A model generated the notes under the pieces. It did not search any database and was not told where the DNA came from. It saw nothing but the letters and a program-made list of their open reading frames with translations. 64,000 nucleotides of DNA, taken from positions 1 to 64,000 of the IMG/VR virus record IMGVR_UViG_3300027759_000067. The stretch is one strand, 5' to 3'. This stretch comes from a virus. The translations under genes and the position numbers were made by a program. Shown piece by piece: positions 22,855 through 29,200 of this stretch; within the stretch, counting starts at the first letter, position 1, and every line of letters starts with the position of its first letter.

Positions 22855-23499
22855 ATGCAAATGATCGATGTAATGAAGCGTTTAGCTGAACTTGATAGTA
22901 AAAATCCTACTATCGTTAAAGAAAATCAACAGGTAGAAGAATGCGGTATCATGCCTGAAATGGGTATGGGTATGCCTATGGACAAGCCAGCAATGCCAGC
23001 AAGTATTAATATGACAGCAGGCAGCGGCGAAGAACTCAGCGATATGCTTGCTACCATTATGCAATTAGCAGGTGTTAAACAACACGGTGCCGAAGAGCCA
23101 ATGAGTGCCGAGCCAGCAGTAGCATTAACTGCTGAACCAGAAATGGGCAGCGATGCTACATCTGATATGCGTTCTATGATTGACAAATTAAATCCAATGG
23201 ATGGCGACGATCAAGGTGGTGATGATGGCGTTAGCGTAGCACACGGTGATGTTGACAATGACGGCGATCACGATATGGCCGATCACGAAGCAGAAAAAGA
23301 TGAAGAAGAAACAGACGAAGGACAGTATGATAATAGCCCTTCTGACCCAACTAAGCCACCTCCTTTCAAAGCTAACCAATTTGCCCACCAGGAAAACCAA
23401 CCTGGACAAGGTGATAGAATGGATGGCAATATGCCTAAGGCCACAATGGAACAACAATTGATGGCTGATTATAAGAATTTTATCTCTGAAAACAATTAA
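22855..23499 (+). CDS. Acidic, Met/Asp-rich head-core or scaffold-like protein
   Basis: A 214-residue low-complexity protein. A Met/Pro-rich segment (MPEMGMGMPMDKPAMPAS, residues about 35-52) is followed by a strongly acidic stretch (GDDQGGDDGVSVAHGDVDNDGDHDMADHEAEKDEEETDEG). The C-terminus is MEQQLMADYKNFISENN. Acidic, disordered composition is usual for prohead core proteins such as gp22/gp68 of T4. It starts 3 nt after the preceding gene and ends before a strong terminator. There is no enzyme motif; the role is inferred. Confidence 0.45.
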   Translation: MQMIDVMKRLAELDSKNPTIVKENQQVEECGIMPEMGMGMPMDKPAMPASINMTAGSGEELSDMLATIMQLAGVKQHGAEEPMSAEPAVALTAEPEMGSDATSDMRSMIDKLNPMDGDDQGGDDGVSVAHGDVDNDGDHDMADHEAEKDEEETDEGQYDNSPSDPTKPPPFKANQFAHQENQPGQGDRMDGNMPKATMEQQLMADYKNFISENN

Positions 23500-23520
23500 T
23501 CAAAACTTAGAACGTAGTTC

Positions 23521-23548
23521 AAATAGCCTCTTCGGAGGCTATTTTTTT
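23521..23548 (+). terminator. Rho-independent terminator with UUCG loop
   Basis: A 10-bp perfect stem, AAATAGCCTC (23521-23530) with GAGGCTATTT (23535-23544), a TTCG tetraloop, and a T tract of seven through 23548. Confidence 0.95.
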
Positions 23549-23551
23549 CAT

Positions 23552-23557
23552 TAAATA
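23552..23557 (+). promoter_or_regulatory. Late promoter box, zero-leader spacing
   Basis: TTAAATA directly after the terminator. The terminase ATG at 23563 is exactly 6 nt downstream. Confidence 0.65.
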
Positions 23558-23562
23558 AGATT

Positions 23563-24486
23563 ATGGGATCAAAAAACTTAGACGGGCAACTGGTAAAAAA
23601 AGCTCACAGCACACAAAAGTTTACAGAACAAGATATTGAAGATCTATTACAATGTTCTGACCCTATTAATGGTCCGCACTATTTCTTAGAGCATTTCTTC
23701 CACATACAACATCCTATTAAGGGTAAACTATTGTATGAGCCATTTGATTATCAACGTAGGTTAATAGATAGCTATCATAACAATCGCTTCAACGTAAATC
23801 TACTTCCTCGCCAAACTGGTAAGACAACCACAGCAGCAGGATATTTACTCTGGTTCGCTATGTTTGTTCCAGATAGTACTATTCTTGTAGCAGCGCATAA
23901 GCATACAGGTGCCCAGGAAATTATGGCACGTATTAGATATGCCTACGAATTATGTCCTGATCATATTAGATGTGGTGCCACAAGTTATAACAAACAAAGT
24001 TTAGAATTTGACAATGGTAGCCGTATCATAGCTCAGACAACCACAGAAACAACAGGTCGTGGTATGTCATTATCATTACTCTACGCAGACGAGTTTGCGT
24101 TTGTACCACCTAACATTGCCAGTGAATTCTGGACTTCAATATCACCTACACTATCAACTGGTGGTAAGGCAATTATTACAAGCACGCCTAACAGCGACGA
24201 AGATCAATTTGCACAGATCTGGAAAGAAGCAAACTATCAATTCGACGAACACGGTAATGAGCAAGATGTAGGACGTAATGGTTTTGCACCATTTAGAGCA
24301 TACTGGCATGAACACCCCGATCGCGACGAAGCATGGGCATCGGAAGAACGTGGACGTATTGGTGAAGAACGTTTCCGTCGTGAGCACGATTGTATAGCTG
24401 GAAACTCTTATATAACTGTTAAATGGCCAGATGGAAAAATAAGAAAAATATCAGTTGAAGAATTGAAAAATATTTTAAGTTCATAA
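23563..24486 (+). CDS. gp17: Terminase large subunit N-terminal part fused to a short split-intein N fragment
   Basis: A 307-residue protein. Residues 1-276 are the gp17 ATPase: Walker A LLPRQTGKTTTAAGY, Walker B SLLYADEFAF, coupling motif IITSTPN, then GEERFRREHD. At codon 277 (24391) a Cys opens an intein: CIAGNSYITVKWPDGKIRK, with ISVEELKNILSS and a stop. This gives a 31-residue Int-N. The conserved Cys of the terminase EC-EF motif is the insertion point. The partner Int-C plus C-extein is encoded at 25174-26262. Trans-splicing would give a 527-residue terminase. The short N and long C fragments match the atypical split intein known from the AceL-TerL terminase. The ATPase powers DNA packaging. 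Confidence 0.88.
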   Translation: MGSKNLDGQLVKKAHSTQKFTEQDIEDLLQCSDPINGPHYFLEHFFHIQHPIKGKLLYEPFDYQRRLIDSYHNNRFNVNLLPRQTGKTTTAAGYLLWFAMFVPDSTILVAAHKHTGAQEIMARIRYAYELCPDHIRCGATSYNKQSLEFDNGSRIIAQTTTETTGRGMSLSLLYADEFAFVPPNIASEFWTSISPTLSTGGKAIITSTPNSDEDQFAQIWKEANYQFDEHGNEQDVGRNGFAPFRAYWHEHPDRDEAWASEERGRIGEERFRREHDCIAGNSYITVKWPDGKIRKISVEELKNILSS

Positions 24487-24501
24487 TATTTGACGAAATG
24501 A

Positions 24502-24507
24502 TAAATA
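24502..24507 (+). promoter_or_regulatory. Late promoter box for the HNH gene, zero-leader spacing
   Basis: GATAAATA in the gap after Int-N. The ATG at 24513 is exactly 6 nt after the box, favouring that start over the ATG at 24498, which would lie upstream of it. Confidence 0.65.
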
Positions 24508-24512
24508 ATATT

Positions 24513-25196
24513 ATGAAAACTCACAAACATCATATTATACCCAAGCATGTTGGTGGAACAGATGAGCAATCCAATCTTGTAGAATTATCAATAGAAGATC
24601 ATGCCAACGCTCACAAAATTTTATATGAAACACACGGACGTTGGCAAGATAGAGTAGCATGGCTCAGTTTATCTGGAATAATGAAGGACGAAGAAAGAAT
24701 ATATGAAATATTAAAAAACTCCAATCCTGGAGGATATAAACATACAGAGGAAACTAAACAGAAATTATCAGAAATGCGATTGGGTGAAAAAAATCCAATG
24801 TATGGAAAAACAGCACACAATTACGGGAAAAAACGACCAGGTGTTGGTGGTAGAAAAAAAGGAACAGGCTGGTCTGATAAAGAACGAAAAACACAAGAAT
24901 TAGTTAGAGCTACACCCGGATATTATGAATTTACTAAAGATCCTGCTAGAAATAAAAAAATCAGTGACTCTAAAAAAGGAACAATTGGAAATGCCAAGGG
25001 AAAAACTTGGTATAATAATGGAACTACAGAAACTTACAAAGATTATTGCCCCGAAGGATTTATGAAAGGTAGACTACATCGTTTACAAATAGGAAAAAGA
25101 GGAATGAAATGGTATAACAATGGAATTAATAATAGACAATTTAAAGAAAATACTCAACCAGAAGGATACCAATGTGGAAGAATTACTAAAAAATAG
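24513..25196 (+). CDS. HNH homing endonuclease inside the fractured terminase gene
   Basis: A 227-residue free-standing nuclease. The HNH motif lies at the start: KHHIIPKHVGG, then SNLVELSIEDHANAHKI. NUMOD3-like DNA-binding repeats follow (KHTEETKQKLSEMRLGEKNPMYGK, AHNYGKKRPG). The C-terminus has two WYNNG-containing modules ending PEGFMKGRL and PEGYQCGRI. Its stop lies 23 bp inside the next gene's frame, whose start is at 25174. The layout Int-N, endonuclease, Int-C matches 'fractured gene' arrangements described in phage metagenomes. The enzyme probably cuts intein-less terminase genes. Confidence 0.85.
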   Translation: MKTHKHHIIPKHVGGTDEQSNLVELSIEDHANAHKILYETHGRWQDRVAWLSLSGIMKDEERIYEILKNSNPGGYKHTEETKQKLSEMRLGEKNPMYGKTAHNYGKKRPGVGGRKKGTGWSDKERKTQELVRATPGYYEFTKDPARNKKISDSKKGTIGNAKGKTWYNNGTTETYKDYCPEGFMKGRLHRLQIGKRGMKWYNNGINNRQFKENTQPEGYQCGRITKK

Positions 25197-26262
25197 TTTA
25201 GGATTGCAGGTTCTTACAGACACTGGATGGAGTAATTTTGAAGGATTACTACTCAAAGGATTTAGAAAAACTGTTGAGGTAAAAACACAAACTCGATCTA
25301 TTATCTGTACACCCGATCATAAATTCTTTGACAAACAATTTAACCCAATTGAGGCTAAAAAATTAAAACCAGGATCGAGAATAAAAAACAATTTAGGAAT
25401 TGATCAAGTAGTTTCTATTACGTTAAAAAATACAGAACCTGTCTACGACTTATATAATGTTGAAAAAAATCATAGATTTTATGCTAACGATATATTAGTA
25501 AAAAATTGTGAATTCTTGGTATTTGATGAAACATTGATCAACAGTATGAAATTAGCCACTTTAGATGGTAGCAAACCTATAATGAATATGGGTGAAGCAC
25601 GTTGGTATAAAAAGATTAACCCGCAATCAACTTATCTTGTTAGTCTCGATCCAAGTTTAGGCACAGGAGGAGATCCTGCTGCTATACAAGTTTTAGAAAT
25701 ACCCAGTTTTGAGCAAGTAGCAGAATGGCAGCATAATCTAACAGTTATACAAAGTCAAGTACGTATAATGCGTGATATTTGTACCTACATTAATGACGAA
25801 TGTACCAACAGAGGAGCAACATCCAGCATATACTACAGTGTAGAAAACAATAATATAGGTGAAGCTGCATTAGTTGCTATCAACGAAATTGGTGAAGAAA
25901 GCATCCCTGGATTGTTCCTCAGTGAACCTATTAAGAAAGGTCATGTACGTAGATATCGCAAGGGATTTAACACCACACATTCTGTTAAAATCAACGCCTG
26001 TGCCAAGCTAAAATACTTAATTGAAAGCGATAGATTAAAGATACATTCTCGTGCTTTTATCAGTGAATTAAAGACATATGTGGCAAAAGGACTGAGTTTT
26101 GAAGCTAAAGTAGGCGCACATGATGACCTTGTTAGTGCTATGTTGCTGGTAATTCGTATGACATTAGTACTGCAAGATTGGGATCCTGCTATCTACGATA
26201 GGATGCGTGAGGAGCGTGAGGACGAGTTTATCATGCCCATGCCCATCTATATTAGTTCCTAA
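25174..26262 (+). CDS. gp17: Split-intein C fragment fused to terminase large subunit C-terminal nuclease part
   Basis: A 362-residue protein. The first 111 residues are Int-C: LQVLTDTGWSNFEGLLLKG, block B SIICTPDHKFFDKQF, KLKPGSRIKN and block F NHRFYANDILVKN. The C-extein starts at Cys (25507): CEFLVFDETLINSMKLATLDG, then the nuclease motif LVSLDPSLGTGGDPAAIQ and the late acidic GAHDDLVSAMLL. The frame is open from ATG 25120. GTG at 25174 is preferred because GAAGGA (25161-25166) is well placed and the ATG has no such site. The residue before the terminal Asn is Lys, not the usual His. The nuclease cuts concatemeric DNA at headful. Confidence 0.85.
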   Translation: MEELLKNSLGLQVLTDTGWSNFEGLLLKGFRKTVEVKTQTRSIICTPDHKFFDKQFNPIEAKKLKPGSRIKNNLGIDQVVSITLKNTEPVYDLYNVEKNHRFYANDILVKNCEFLVFDETLINSMKLATLDGSKPIMNMGEARWYKKINPQSTYLVSLDPSLGTGGDPAAIQVLEIPSFEQVAEWQHNLTVIQSQVRIMRDICTYINDECTNRGATSSIYYSVENNNIGEAALVAINEIGEESIPGLFLSEPIKKGHVRRYRKGFNTTHSVKINACAKLKYLIESDRLKIHSRAFISELKTYVAKGLSFEAKVGAHDDLVSAMLLVIRMTLVLQDWDPAIYDRMREEREDEFIMPMPIYISS

Positions 26263-26267
26263 TTAAA

Positions 26268-26273
26268 TAAATA
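26268..26273 (+). promoter_or_regulatory. Late promoter box, zero-leader spacing
   Basis: Overlapping TAAATA copies at 26264-26269 and 26268-26273. The ATG at 26279 is exactly 6 nt after the second. Confidence 0.65.
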
Positions 26274-26278
26274 ATACT

Positions 26279-29200
26279 ATGAAACCTATACAACTAATAT
26301 CGCAAGATCTCTTTGACAAAGTCCGCAGCCGTTTTACTAATTTAGAAATGGGCGACGAAACAGGTGCAGTTACCATTGACCCAGCAGAAGCACGTTTCTT
26401 TGATTTTGACTTTGTTAACGAAGGGGTTGATCTTGGTCGTGTTAGTATGAGTTTAAATGATCTTGGCAGTTTGAAGATTTATTACAGCCAAGGCATTACA
26501 GAAAATCAAGATGATCACGCTACACAAATGTGGTACAATTTCCTTAAAGAAATGAGATTGTTTGCCATGCGTAGATTGCTGAGATTTGATACAAGAGACA
26601 TTGCAAAAACTAATTTAGACAAGAATGATTTTCAACACTTGGCCGCAACACAAGGCCCTAAGGAAGAACCAGATATGAATACTATGAACGAAACTAAAAA
26701 AATTAAAAAGAGTGTGGCGGAAGGCTCGCATGAAGAACAAGTTGCAAGATTGGCCGCATATAATGAAAAAATGGCTGGTAAAAATCCACCAATTGAATTG
26801 GGTCTGCGAGAAGTAGGCAACTGGGCAAAAGTTGGTCACTATGGCGATCCTATCAAAACAGCCTGGCTCAATATAGCAAAATACGGAGTTAGAAATAATA
26901 GATTCAATAACTCAGTTGAAAAAGTAATGTCAGCAATTAGTGAATTCCCTGATCTTGAGGACGAAGTATACGACATGTATGATATTAACCAAGATGAAGT
27001 GGATATATTATATAATGCCTATGAAACAGTATATGACCAATGGGAACAATTACAAGGTCAGCAAGGTGTAGCGGAAGGCCTGCAAGAATCACGTTGGAAC
27101 AATAAGAGTTCCAGAAAAACTAGCCGCGCAGTACAGGGCAAAACAGAAGTTATTGTACGTCACGCACACGCAGTAGAAGAAACATATCCAGGCGCACGTA
27201 GTCAGAGCAAAAACATCAAGGCAATTTTTATACAGAACGCAGACGGCGAACGTTTCAAGTATCCATTTATACACACAGCAGGTGCGTTCGCAATGGCACA
27301 ACACGTAGATCACGGTGGTGTTCCACATGATCCAGCAGGCAAAGCAATTATTAAAATGAGTGAGAATATTGCAAAGTTAGGCGAATTCCAACGACATATA
27401 CAACGTAGTTCCTTGCACGCCGATGCACATGGAATTGCAGAACGTGCCATAGGCCACATGAATGAACTTAAAACAAGAATCGCAGCATTAGGAAAACGCC
27501 ATCATTATCAAGCATGGAAAGAAGAATTTGAAGCGTCAGGAATGGGTGAGCCTGCAGACGAAATGATGCTTGACGCAGTAACATTAGAAGATTACAAGAG
27601 TAAATTTACACAAACAAATTTCCAAGAAGAATTAGTTGGGTTCTTCCCACTACTACATAGCATCATGCGTGAAGCTAATACCGTTGACCTTGAAGAATAT
27701 GTAGAGGAAGCAGCAGCACCTTGGGAAGACGAAGAAGCTGATGATAGTGAAAAAGACAAAGACGACCAAACAAATACCAAAGGTTCTGATGGAGCCGAAC
27801 ACGGTGGGCATTCAAGAGCAAGACACTTGGCAAGACAGGCAATTCCAAAAGAAAAATCAGCAGCAGAAAGCATCAACTCTTTTGAAGAATGGGCAGATTC
27901 TACAGAACAAGGCAAACTCACAGACGACCAAATGAATCATCTTAAGGCAGCAATTGAGGCATTACCACAGGGACCAAATGGACCACAATTAGACTCTGCG
28001 GTGGCTAATGATTTCTTTAGCGACCCAGAATTAGGCTTAACAGAATTACCAAATTTTGAAGAATTAACTCAGGCATTACAAGACGAAGAAGGACGCGATG
28101 AAGAAATTAGAGCAACTCCTTTACAATTATTCCAAACTTGGGCAAAAGAAAATAATCCAGAACTATTAGCATCATTAGGCATGACAGGTGCTGAAGAACC
28201 AGCACCTGCTCCAGAAGCACCTCCTGCTCCAGAGCCTGCACCCGAACAACCAGTAGCAGAAGGCAAGAGCAGTATGGTACACGAAGTAGCCAAGATTGTT
28301 AAGAGTTTTTATAACGCTGATAATGAAAGCGTTGGACCATTCCGTGCAGAAGAAAACATCGCATTGGATTGCAAAAAGCAAATTAGTGAGAAGTTTGGTG
28401 AGAAAGCCGGAGAACAAGCCTACGAAATGGCCGAAGCATTTATTAATAAACTTACACAAGAATGGCAACAAAAACACGGACAGATACAAAAACATAGTCC
28501 AGTTGATCAAGGCGACGGCCTAAGTGTAGATAGTTTGAAAGAAATATTAGGCAGAATTAAAAGTAAAGTAGAAGGTATTGGAAAACCAGAAATGGAAGAA
28601 AAAGATGAGTGGCATCCATCCAAACATGTCACTGATCCACAAAAGAAAAAAGAACTTGAACCTCATGATAAAGATGTCAAGCGTGGCAGTTATGCCGACC
28701 GCGCCAACTACTTAGATGCTGCCGGTGTTAAACGTGATACACAACAAGACGAAGGCTTTGTGGGCAATATGATTGACAAGGCTAAAGGTATGTTTGGAAA
28801 GACACCAGCAGCACCGGCCGCTCCAGCACCAGCAACAGGTAACAACGGAGCCCATGCCGATGGTAAGCCAAATTCTTGGATGGAACCAGACATGCGTAAG
28901 GACTTTGAAAATACAGAAATTTCTACTTTTCTCTTATATAACATTCGTATGATATATAGATGGGCTAAAGAAGGTCGTAACATACGCAATTATATTCAAG
29001 ACTTGAAGAAATTAGAACACGAAAATATCAGTAAGCCAACAACAGCAGCAGCCTTTAAATTCATTATGGACAATCTTGCTAGTGGTGAAGTAACTGATCC
29101 TAAAATGATAATGCAAATAGCAGATAAAGCCCACACATTAATGGGACATAGCGATATTGAACAAGCAACTCGTGAAGGCGTAGACAAGAGCCAAGTTCCT

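What the first reader, a model, noticed from the sequence alone, without database searches (positions are those of the whole stretch)
23563..26262. Terminase large subunit is split by an atypical (short-N, long-C) intein with an HNH gene between the halves
The gp17 ATPase half ends at REHD and continues straight into a 31-residue Int-N beginning Cys (24391) and a stop. The nuclease half begins with a 111-residue Int-C ending VKN before Cys (25507). Joined, they restore the conserved terminase Cys-Glu-Phe motif and a 527-residue protein. Most natural split inteins break after about 100 residues. A 25-31 residue N part with a roughly 104-111 residue C part matches the rare AceL-TerL type from a metagenomic terminase. 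Here the full locus is seen, including a free-standing HNH endonuclease in the gap, so packaging would depend on protein trans-splicing.
Basis: partly seen in the sequence, partly recalled or inferred. Interest (0 to 1): 0.88.

Follow-up and report, generated by a model that had tools for sequence, protein, structure and literature searches.

The report
HNH-bearing split intein breaks phage terminase
In this phage the gene for the DNA-packaging motor is broken in two by a mobile self-splicing protein element that carries its own DNA-cutting gene, and relatives show the element arriving, decaying and apparently healing, so the virus most likely packages DNA only after the two protein halves are stitched together.

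Summary
A 1,116-bp element (24391-25506) interrupts TerL between Asp276 and the conserved Cys-Glu-Phe. It encodes a 31-residue Int-N, a free HNH/NUMOD3 endonuclease and a 111-residue Int-C (GTG start, Shine-Dalgarno). Phages 97-98% identical in the TerL N-half carry uninterrupted TerL; about 30 related contigs carry the same element. It is horizontally mobile: near-identical elements (dS 0.2-0.4) sit in TerL genes whose own dS is above 1.7 or saturated. Both halves and the nuclease are under purifying selection.

The Hint fold is supported by AlphaFold plus Foldseek (best match VidaL). RNA splicing is unlikely: no intron match, and one relative keeps the split with a 64-nt gap. The AceL-TerL comparison is only partly right: the architecture matches, but the AceL/GOS/Cat lineage is a second family, with another endonuclease, at the same site.

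New here: the HNH leader holds a conserved non-coding mimic of the TerL DNA just 3' of the insertion site, placed like I-TevI's operator. Relatives show HNH erosion and an apparently re-fused contiguous intein. Fractured genes and atypical TerL split inteins are already known, so this is a new variant of a known kind.

The parts
23563..24390 (+). TerL N-extein, ATPase half, 276 aa (ends REHD)
   Evidence: Terminase_6N 2.9e-15, phrog_36964 positions 432-629; continuous with the C-half in 78 relatives
24391..24486 (+). Int-N, 31 aa from Cys1, with stop codon 24484-24486
   Evidence: Sequence; same length class and motifs in about 30 relatives; collinear with contiguous intein of L109
24476..24515 (+). 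Non-coding mimic of TerL DNA 25509-25548 (just 3' of the insertion site), overlapping the Int-N stop; putative HNH operator
   Evidence: 26/40 identical, Markov P 4.5e-4; conserved at 81% over 14 loci against 51% for HNH third positions; pattern scan hits TerL CEF sites
24501..24510 (+). ATAAATAATA motif before the HNH start, possible promoter or start element
   Evidence: Same motif and spacing before ATG 22262 and ATG 26279
24513..25196 (+). Free-standing HNH/NUMOD3 homing endonuclease, 227 aa (longer ORF from 24498)
   Evidence: NUMOD3 6.9e-10, HNH 0.0015; homing endonuclease phrog_655 6.3e-20; dN/dS about 0.1
25161..25166 (+). GAAGGA, Shine-Dalgarno for Int-C, inside the HNH tail
   Evidence: Conserved in most HNH-type relatives
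25174..25506 (+). Int-C, 111 aa from GTG, overlapping the HNH end; ends VKN
   Evidence: Profile matches to PDB inteins; AF2 pLDDT 94 and Foldseek intein matches
25507..26262 (+). TerL C-extein, nuclease half, 251 aa from Cys+1 (CEFLVFDE), with stop
   Evidence: Terminase_6C 6.8e-7, phrog_36964 positions 626-869

Best explanation
A mobile 'fractured gene' element in TerL. The upstream gene makes TerL(1-276)-Int-N and the downstream gene makes Int-C-TerL(277-527). The two intein pieces assemble into one Hint-fold intein, which ligates Asp276 to Cys277 by class-1 trans-splicing (Cys1, block-B Thr/His, terminal Asn, Cys+1), giving the 527-aa packaging motor. The HNH protein between them is not part of the spliced product. 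It most likely nicks intein-less TerL near this site so that repair copies the whole 1.1-kb cassette (homing). Shown here: anatomy, empty sites, Hint fold (predicted), purifying selection, horizontal transfer with sharp edges. Inferred: the splicing chemistry, HNH cleavage, and HNH binding to the TerL-like mimic in front of its own gene as an autorepression operator, by analogy with I-TevI (this last step about 0.45).
For: Coordinates and frames. Empty-site alleles L006/L007, nested with the window in the TerL tree at SH-aLRT 98; L090 nested with empties L073/L084 at 100. Same layout in about 30 contigs. Contiguous 143-aa version at the same site in L109, collinear with Int-N+Int-C. AF2 of the L109 intein pLDDT 92.8, Foldseek top VidaL 7.5e-10, top hits inteins; window Int-C pLDDT 94, same result. 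dN/dS about 0.1 for HNH and mostly 0.07-0.28 for Int-C. dS 0.2-0.4 for HNH and Int-C (0.5-0.9 for the 28-codon Int-N) among L087/L088/L090 against >1.7 or saturated for their TerL; identity about 93% inside, falling to about 70% at both edges. TerL-mimic leader. I-TevI precedent, 15/20 identity between operator and homing site (PMC2988022).
Against: No biochemistry. The penultimate residue is Lys, not His. Pfam Intein_splicing is below its curated cut-off (24.8 vs 35.8 bits) and the 31-aa Int-N gives no Pfam intein hit. The HNH cleavage site is unknown. Sequence alone cannot show that both halves are made.
Confidence: 0.92

Rival explanations
1. RNA-level splicing: a group I or other intron carrying the HNH gene interrupts an otherwise contiguous intein (or TerL) and is removed from the mRNA, as in the spliced terL of phage ICP1.
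For: HNH genes are common in phage introns; ICP1 terL is spliced at the RNA level (PMC10448857).
Against: No Rfam match up to E=1 over 23400-26400. L103 keeps the split with only 64 nt between the Int-N stop and Int-C start, and L131 has a similarly short gap: no room for such an intron. Int-C keeps its own start codon and Shine-Dalgarno.
Confidence: 0.03
2. Gene in pieces without ligation: the two TerL halves work as separate subunits and the intein pieces are dead or only glue, as for NrdA split by mobE in phage Aeh1.
For: Essential genes split by mobE and mobA insertions are described in T4-like phages (PMC2988022).
Against: Cys1, block B Thr/His, terminal Asn and Cys+1 are kept over large divergence; Int-N and Int-C are under purifying selection; L109 has the same intein in one continuous frame.
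Confidence: 0.04
3. Only about the leader: the TerL-like sequence before the HNH gene is a historical scar or a plain promoter, not an HNH-binding operator.
For: An ATAAATAATA motif shared with two other genes follows directly, so part of the leader may be kept for expression; tracking of the local TerL is weak (own 308/441 nt, permutation p 0.018, not corrected for kinship).
Against: A scar should decay, yet 24 nt stay 81% identical where HNH third codon positions are 51% identical. A plain promoter need not resemble TerL, yet a pattern taken from the leader finds only HNH leaders, intact TerL genes at the CEF site, and unrelated chance matches in 2.9 million contigs.
Confidence: 0.45
4. Assembly artefact: a foreign piece joined into TerL by mis-assembly.
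For: Single metagenomic contig.
Against: The same layout with exact ends in about 30 independent contigs, with natural divergence and dN/dS well below 1.
Confidence: 0.01

Closest known systems
Atypical TerL split inteins AceL-TerL, GOS-TerL, Cat (consensus)
   Same: Host gene TerL, short Int-N (25-37 aa) and long Int-C (104-115 aa) (PMC11766414). Relatives whose Int-C matches CatC sit at exactly this insertion site.
   Different: By sequence the window Int-C belongs to a separate lineage (CatC only 2.8e-6), has Lys instead of the penultimate His, and comes with an HNH nuclease; the CatC-like lineage here carries a DUF7487 protein instead.
Fractured genes: split intein with a free-standing endonuclease between the halves (Dassa et al. 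2009; from memory, paper not held)
   Same: Essential phage gene broken by a split intein with an endonuclease gene in the gap. A cultured example is PolB of Pseudomonas phage MIJ3 with HNH (PMC6892783); MIJ3-type phages also have the closest cultured TerL to the window (62%).
   Different: MIJ3 is PolB with blocks A-B on the N part. Here it is TerL, with the short-N split and an HNH leader that mimics the TerL target.
I-TevI and other T4 intron endonucleases with operator-like homing-site copies
   Same: A sequence resembling the homing site lies at the promoter of the endonuclease gene (15/20 identity for I-TevI; PMC2988022).
   Different: I-TevI is a GIY-YIG enzyme in a group I intron with tested binding; here it is an HNH gene in a split intein and only sequence evidence.
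VidaL, gp41-1 and Spl DnaX inteins (PDB 6vgv, 6qaz, 7cfv)
   Same: Same Hint fold; best sequence and structure matches.
   Different: Only about 20-26% identity; separate inteins, not close relatives.

Membership tests
Split intein (Hint, class 1) | Cys/Ser/Thr at position 1 and +1, terminal Asn | tested here: met
   Cys at 24391, Asn before 25507, Cys at 25507; kept in relatives
Split intein (Hint, class 1) | Block B Thr-x-x-His and block F Asp/His | tested here: met
   CTPDH and VYDL..KNHRFY; T46, H49 and D92 invariant in A4
Split intein (Hint, class 1) | Penultimate His | tested here: not met
   Lys in the window (LVKN); Lys or Ser in all full-length relatives examined. Usual but not obligatory for inteins (own knowledge).
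Split intein (Hint, class 1) | Hint fold formed by N and C parts | tested here: met
   Contiguous relative L109 pLDDT 92.8, Foldseek VidaL TM 0.84; window Int-C alone matches too. The window Int-N/Int-C complex itself was not modelled.
Split intein (Hint, class 1) | Trans-splicing activity | not testable with these tools
   Needs expression
AceL/GOS/Cat-TerL lineage | In TerL with short Int-N and long Int-C | tested here: met
   31 + 111 aa in TerL
AceL/GOS/Cat-TerL lineage | Int-C closer to CatC than to other inteins | tested here: not met
   CatC 2.8e-6 behind DnaX 5e-12, VidaL 1.7e-10, gp41-1 7e-10; L113-type Int-C gives CatC 2.9e-16
Fractured gene (split intein plus endonuclease) | Conserved gene broken by split intein halves with a free-standing endonuclease ORF between them | tested here: met
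HNH homing endonuclease element | HNH and NUMOD domains and phylogenetic signs of recent transfer | tested here: met
HNH homing endonuclease element | Cuts the empty allele | not testable with these tools
   Needs in-vitro cleavage
I-TevI-like autoregulation | Homing-site-like sequence in front of the endonuclease gene | tested here: met
   that a promoter lies there, and that this TerL stretch is the homing site, is inferred
I-TevI-like autoregulation | Endonuclease binds it and represses transcription | not testable with these tools
   Needs footprint and reporter
Group I / II intron | Covariance-model match in the interrupted region | tested here: not met
   No Rfam match up to E=1

The most novel reading that the evidence does not exclude
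The HNH gene carries a conserved non-coding copy of its own TerL target in its leader, used as an operator for autorepression, so a split-intein homing element has reached the same control design as the intron endonuclease I-TevI. The related TerL loci form a full life cycle: invasion, nuclease erosion, nuclease-free split intein, and re-fusion into a contiguous mini-intein (L109).
Probability: 0.45. Interest if true: 0.74.

Novelty: new variant of a known kind. Interest (0 to 1): 0.64.

Why it matters
It ties an essential virion motor to protein trans-splicing in a group of uncultured phages, and gives one insertion site in every state: empty, HNH-split, nuclease-eroded split, split without nuclease, split with another nuclease family, and contiguous. 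That makes the question of how split inteins arise, persist and end directly testable. The apparently re-fused L109 suggests that splitting is reversible. The TerL mimic in the HNH leader offers a concrete regulation model that can be tested with one purified protein. The short Int-N, Lys-penultimate inteins are also new candidates for protein semi-synthesis.

Tried and rejected
Rfam scan for an intron: nothing. Pfam intein model against the whole virus record: no hit, so Pfam alone would miss this intein. T4-type TATAAATA late promoter: one copy in the record, so the strict motif is not supported; the looser ATAAATAATA is shared by three genes. ATG 24498 as HNH start: set aside because the frame before ATG 24513 is broken in many relatives. 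Similar sequences at the two ends of the split (VEELKNIL / VEELLKN) looked like a duplication scar, but were not recovered as a repeat family, and Int-C's first codons overlap HNH-tail DNA, so this was dropped. Co-conversion around the window insert: no clear drop in identity towards the site against L006/L007. The papers that define fractured genes and AceL/GOS-TerL are not held, so their exact sequences could not be compared; CatC in the PDB served as proxy. Int-N rows misaligned in a joint alignment and were left out of the fold job. L109 as ancestral rather than re-fused: not excluded outright, but its junction still encodes the HNH tail EGFHRGRISKK* in another frame and its TerL is nested among HNH-bearing ones.

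Full report
OBSERVATION. The finding holds at the stated coordinates. TerL runs from 23563 to Asp276 at 24390, continues in frame for 31 residues beginning with Cys at 24391, and stops at 24484-24486. The second half begins with Int-C and resumes TerL at Cys25507, ending at 26262. Both halves match one terminase profile end to end: phrog_36964, 432-629 and 626-869. Pfam finds Terminase_6N and Terminase_6C, NUMOD3 and a weak HNH, and a weak Intein_splicing match below its cut-off.

EMPTY SITES AND RELATIVES. Eighty relatives of the N-half were fetched. Two are interrupted, and 78 read through this junction with no insert, among them L006 and L007, 97-98% identical to the window in the N-half. 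The inserted segment is therefore not ordinary terminase. Searches with Int-C and HNH brought about 30 further contigs with the same interrupted layout and about 15 with a second intein type at the same residue.

INTEIN. Catalytic positions are Cys1, TPDH (block B), YDL and KNHRFY (block F), terminal Asn and Cys+1; the penultimate residue is Lys, and Lys or Ser in all full-length relatives examined. L109 has the same intein as one open frame: 429 bp, 143 aa, against 31+111 here. Its AlphaFold model has pLDDT 92.8 and its top Foldseek matches are inteins, first VidaL at 7.5e-10. The window Int-C alone gives pLDDT 94 and the same kind of matches. Int-C starts at a GTG with GAAGGA upstream in most HNH-type relatives.

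WHY PROTEIN TRANS-SPLICING. No Rfam family matches the locus up to E=1. L103 has lost the nuclease and leaves only 64 nt between the Int-N stop and the Int-C start, too little for a group I or group II intron, yet it stays split. Int-N, Int-C and HNH evolve under purifying selection; the Int-N estimates are noisy because the piece is short.

MOBILITY. In L087, L088 and L090, HNH and Int-C differ by dS 0.2-0.4 (the short Int-N by 0.5-0.9), while the surrounding TerL genes have dS above 1.7 or saturated. Identity is about 93% across the insert and drops to about 70% in the flanking bins on both sides (L088/L090 stay somewhat higher on the left). In the TerL tree the window sits with empty L006/L007 (support 98) and L090 with empty L073/L084 (100) (quick method, and empties were sampled around the window).

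TWO INTEIN LINEAGES AT ONE SITE. Profiles of the L113-type Int-C match CatC, the engineered consensus of the atypical TerL inteins, at 2.9e-16. The window type matches DnaX, VidaL and gp41-1 better than CatC. The L113 type carries a DUF7487 protein in place of HNH. L131 and L109 have 99% identical TerL but different inteins at the same residue.

THE TerL MIMIC. In about 20 HNH-type loci, 85-88 nt after the start of the intein, the DNA reads (K/E)F(I/V)I(F/Y)DE in the TerL frame: a copy of the DNA just 3' of the insertion site, overlapping the Int-N stop and lying before the HNH start. The window match is 26/40 (P 4.5e-4 against a Markov null) and L087's is 31/40 (P 5e-5); other loci range to 0.06, and they are not independent. 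Over 14 loci the copy is 81% identical on average, against 51% for third codon positions of HNH, and higher in 91 of 91 pairs, although the frame into HNH is broken in many of them. A pattern taken from this leader, run over all viral contigs, hit 27: 11 HNH leaders of this element, 5 intact TerL genes at exactly the CEF site, and 11 unrelated. The copy's Phe/Tyr codon agrees with the local TerL in 15 of 16 informative loci (Fisher 0.0014, not corrected for kinship). It is followed by ATAAATAATA, found at the same spacing before two other genes. T4 I-TevI has the same design: a sequence 15/20 identical to its homing site overlaps its promoter and serves as operator (PMC2988022). I infer the same here; binding is untested.

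LIFE CYCLE. Free-standing relatives of the HNH lie directly upstream of an intact, distant TerL (L159, L164, after a small-terminase-like gene), a plausible source by collaborative homing (concept in PMC2988022 and PMC10448857). L095 and L103 keep only the HNH tail, which holds the Int-C ribosome-binding site. L109's junction still spells the HNH tail EGFHRGRISKK* out of frame, so it looks like a split intein that re-fused; an ancestral contiguous state is less likely but not excluded.

NOVELTY. Fractured genes and short-N TerL split inteins are known (PMC11766414, PMC6892783, PMC10189870; Dassa 2009 from memory). The separate lineage, the HNH target mimic, the swap of nuclease families and the apparent re-fusion are what this locus adds. 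I rate it a new variant of a known kind.

Noticed in passing
L225 2995-4320 and L227 2-718 (Campylobacter phage Los1, KX879627): Cultured Fletchervirus phages have TerL split at another site (LIFIDE|C......SHN|CAFID) by a short-N intein, with the halves on opposite strands about 25 kb apart in the record. This is an isolate-based system to test TerL trans-splicing.
   Followed up: partly
L005 (=L095), LLY|C...HN|CDEF site: This TerL carries a second, contiguous intein at the Walker-B region in addition to the split one; L096, L102, L154 and L157 also show an interrupted N-half there.
   Followed up: no
L109 and L131: TerL proteins 99% identical carry different inteins (re-fused HNH type versus nuclease-free CatC-like type) at the same residue, pointing to intein replacement.
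   Followed up: partly
L159, L160, L162-L165: Free-standing HNH genes related to the window HNH (38-49% over the matched part) lie directly upstream of an intact, distant TerL. L152 has another HNH-like match upstream of its split TerL.
   Followed up: partly
window 22250, 24501, 26267: ATAAATAATA recurs at fixed spacing before an ATG and looks like a gene-start or promoter element of this phage.
   Followed up: partly
L223 2443-4659 (Vibrio phage VP-1): The annotated 738-aa TerL contains an intein-like segment similar to Int-C that is not annotated as an intein.
   Followed up: no
L113, L121, L129, L138: DUF7487-type proteins sit inside split inteins in place of HNH, suggesting that this Pfam family of unknown function is a homing endonuclease family.
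   Followed up: no
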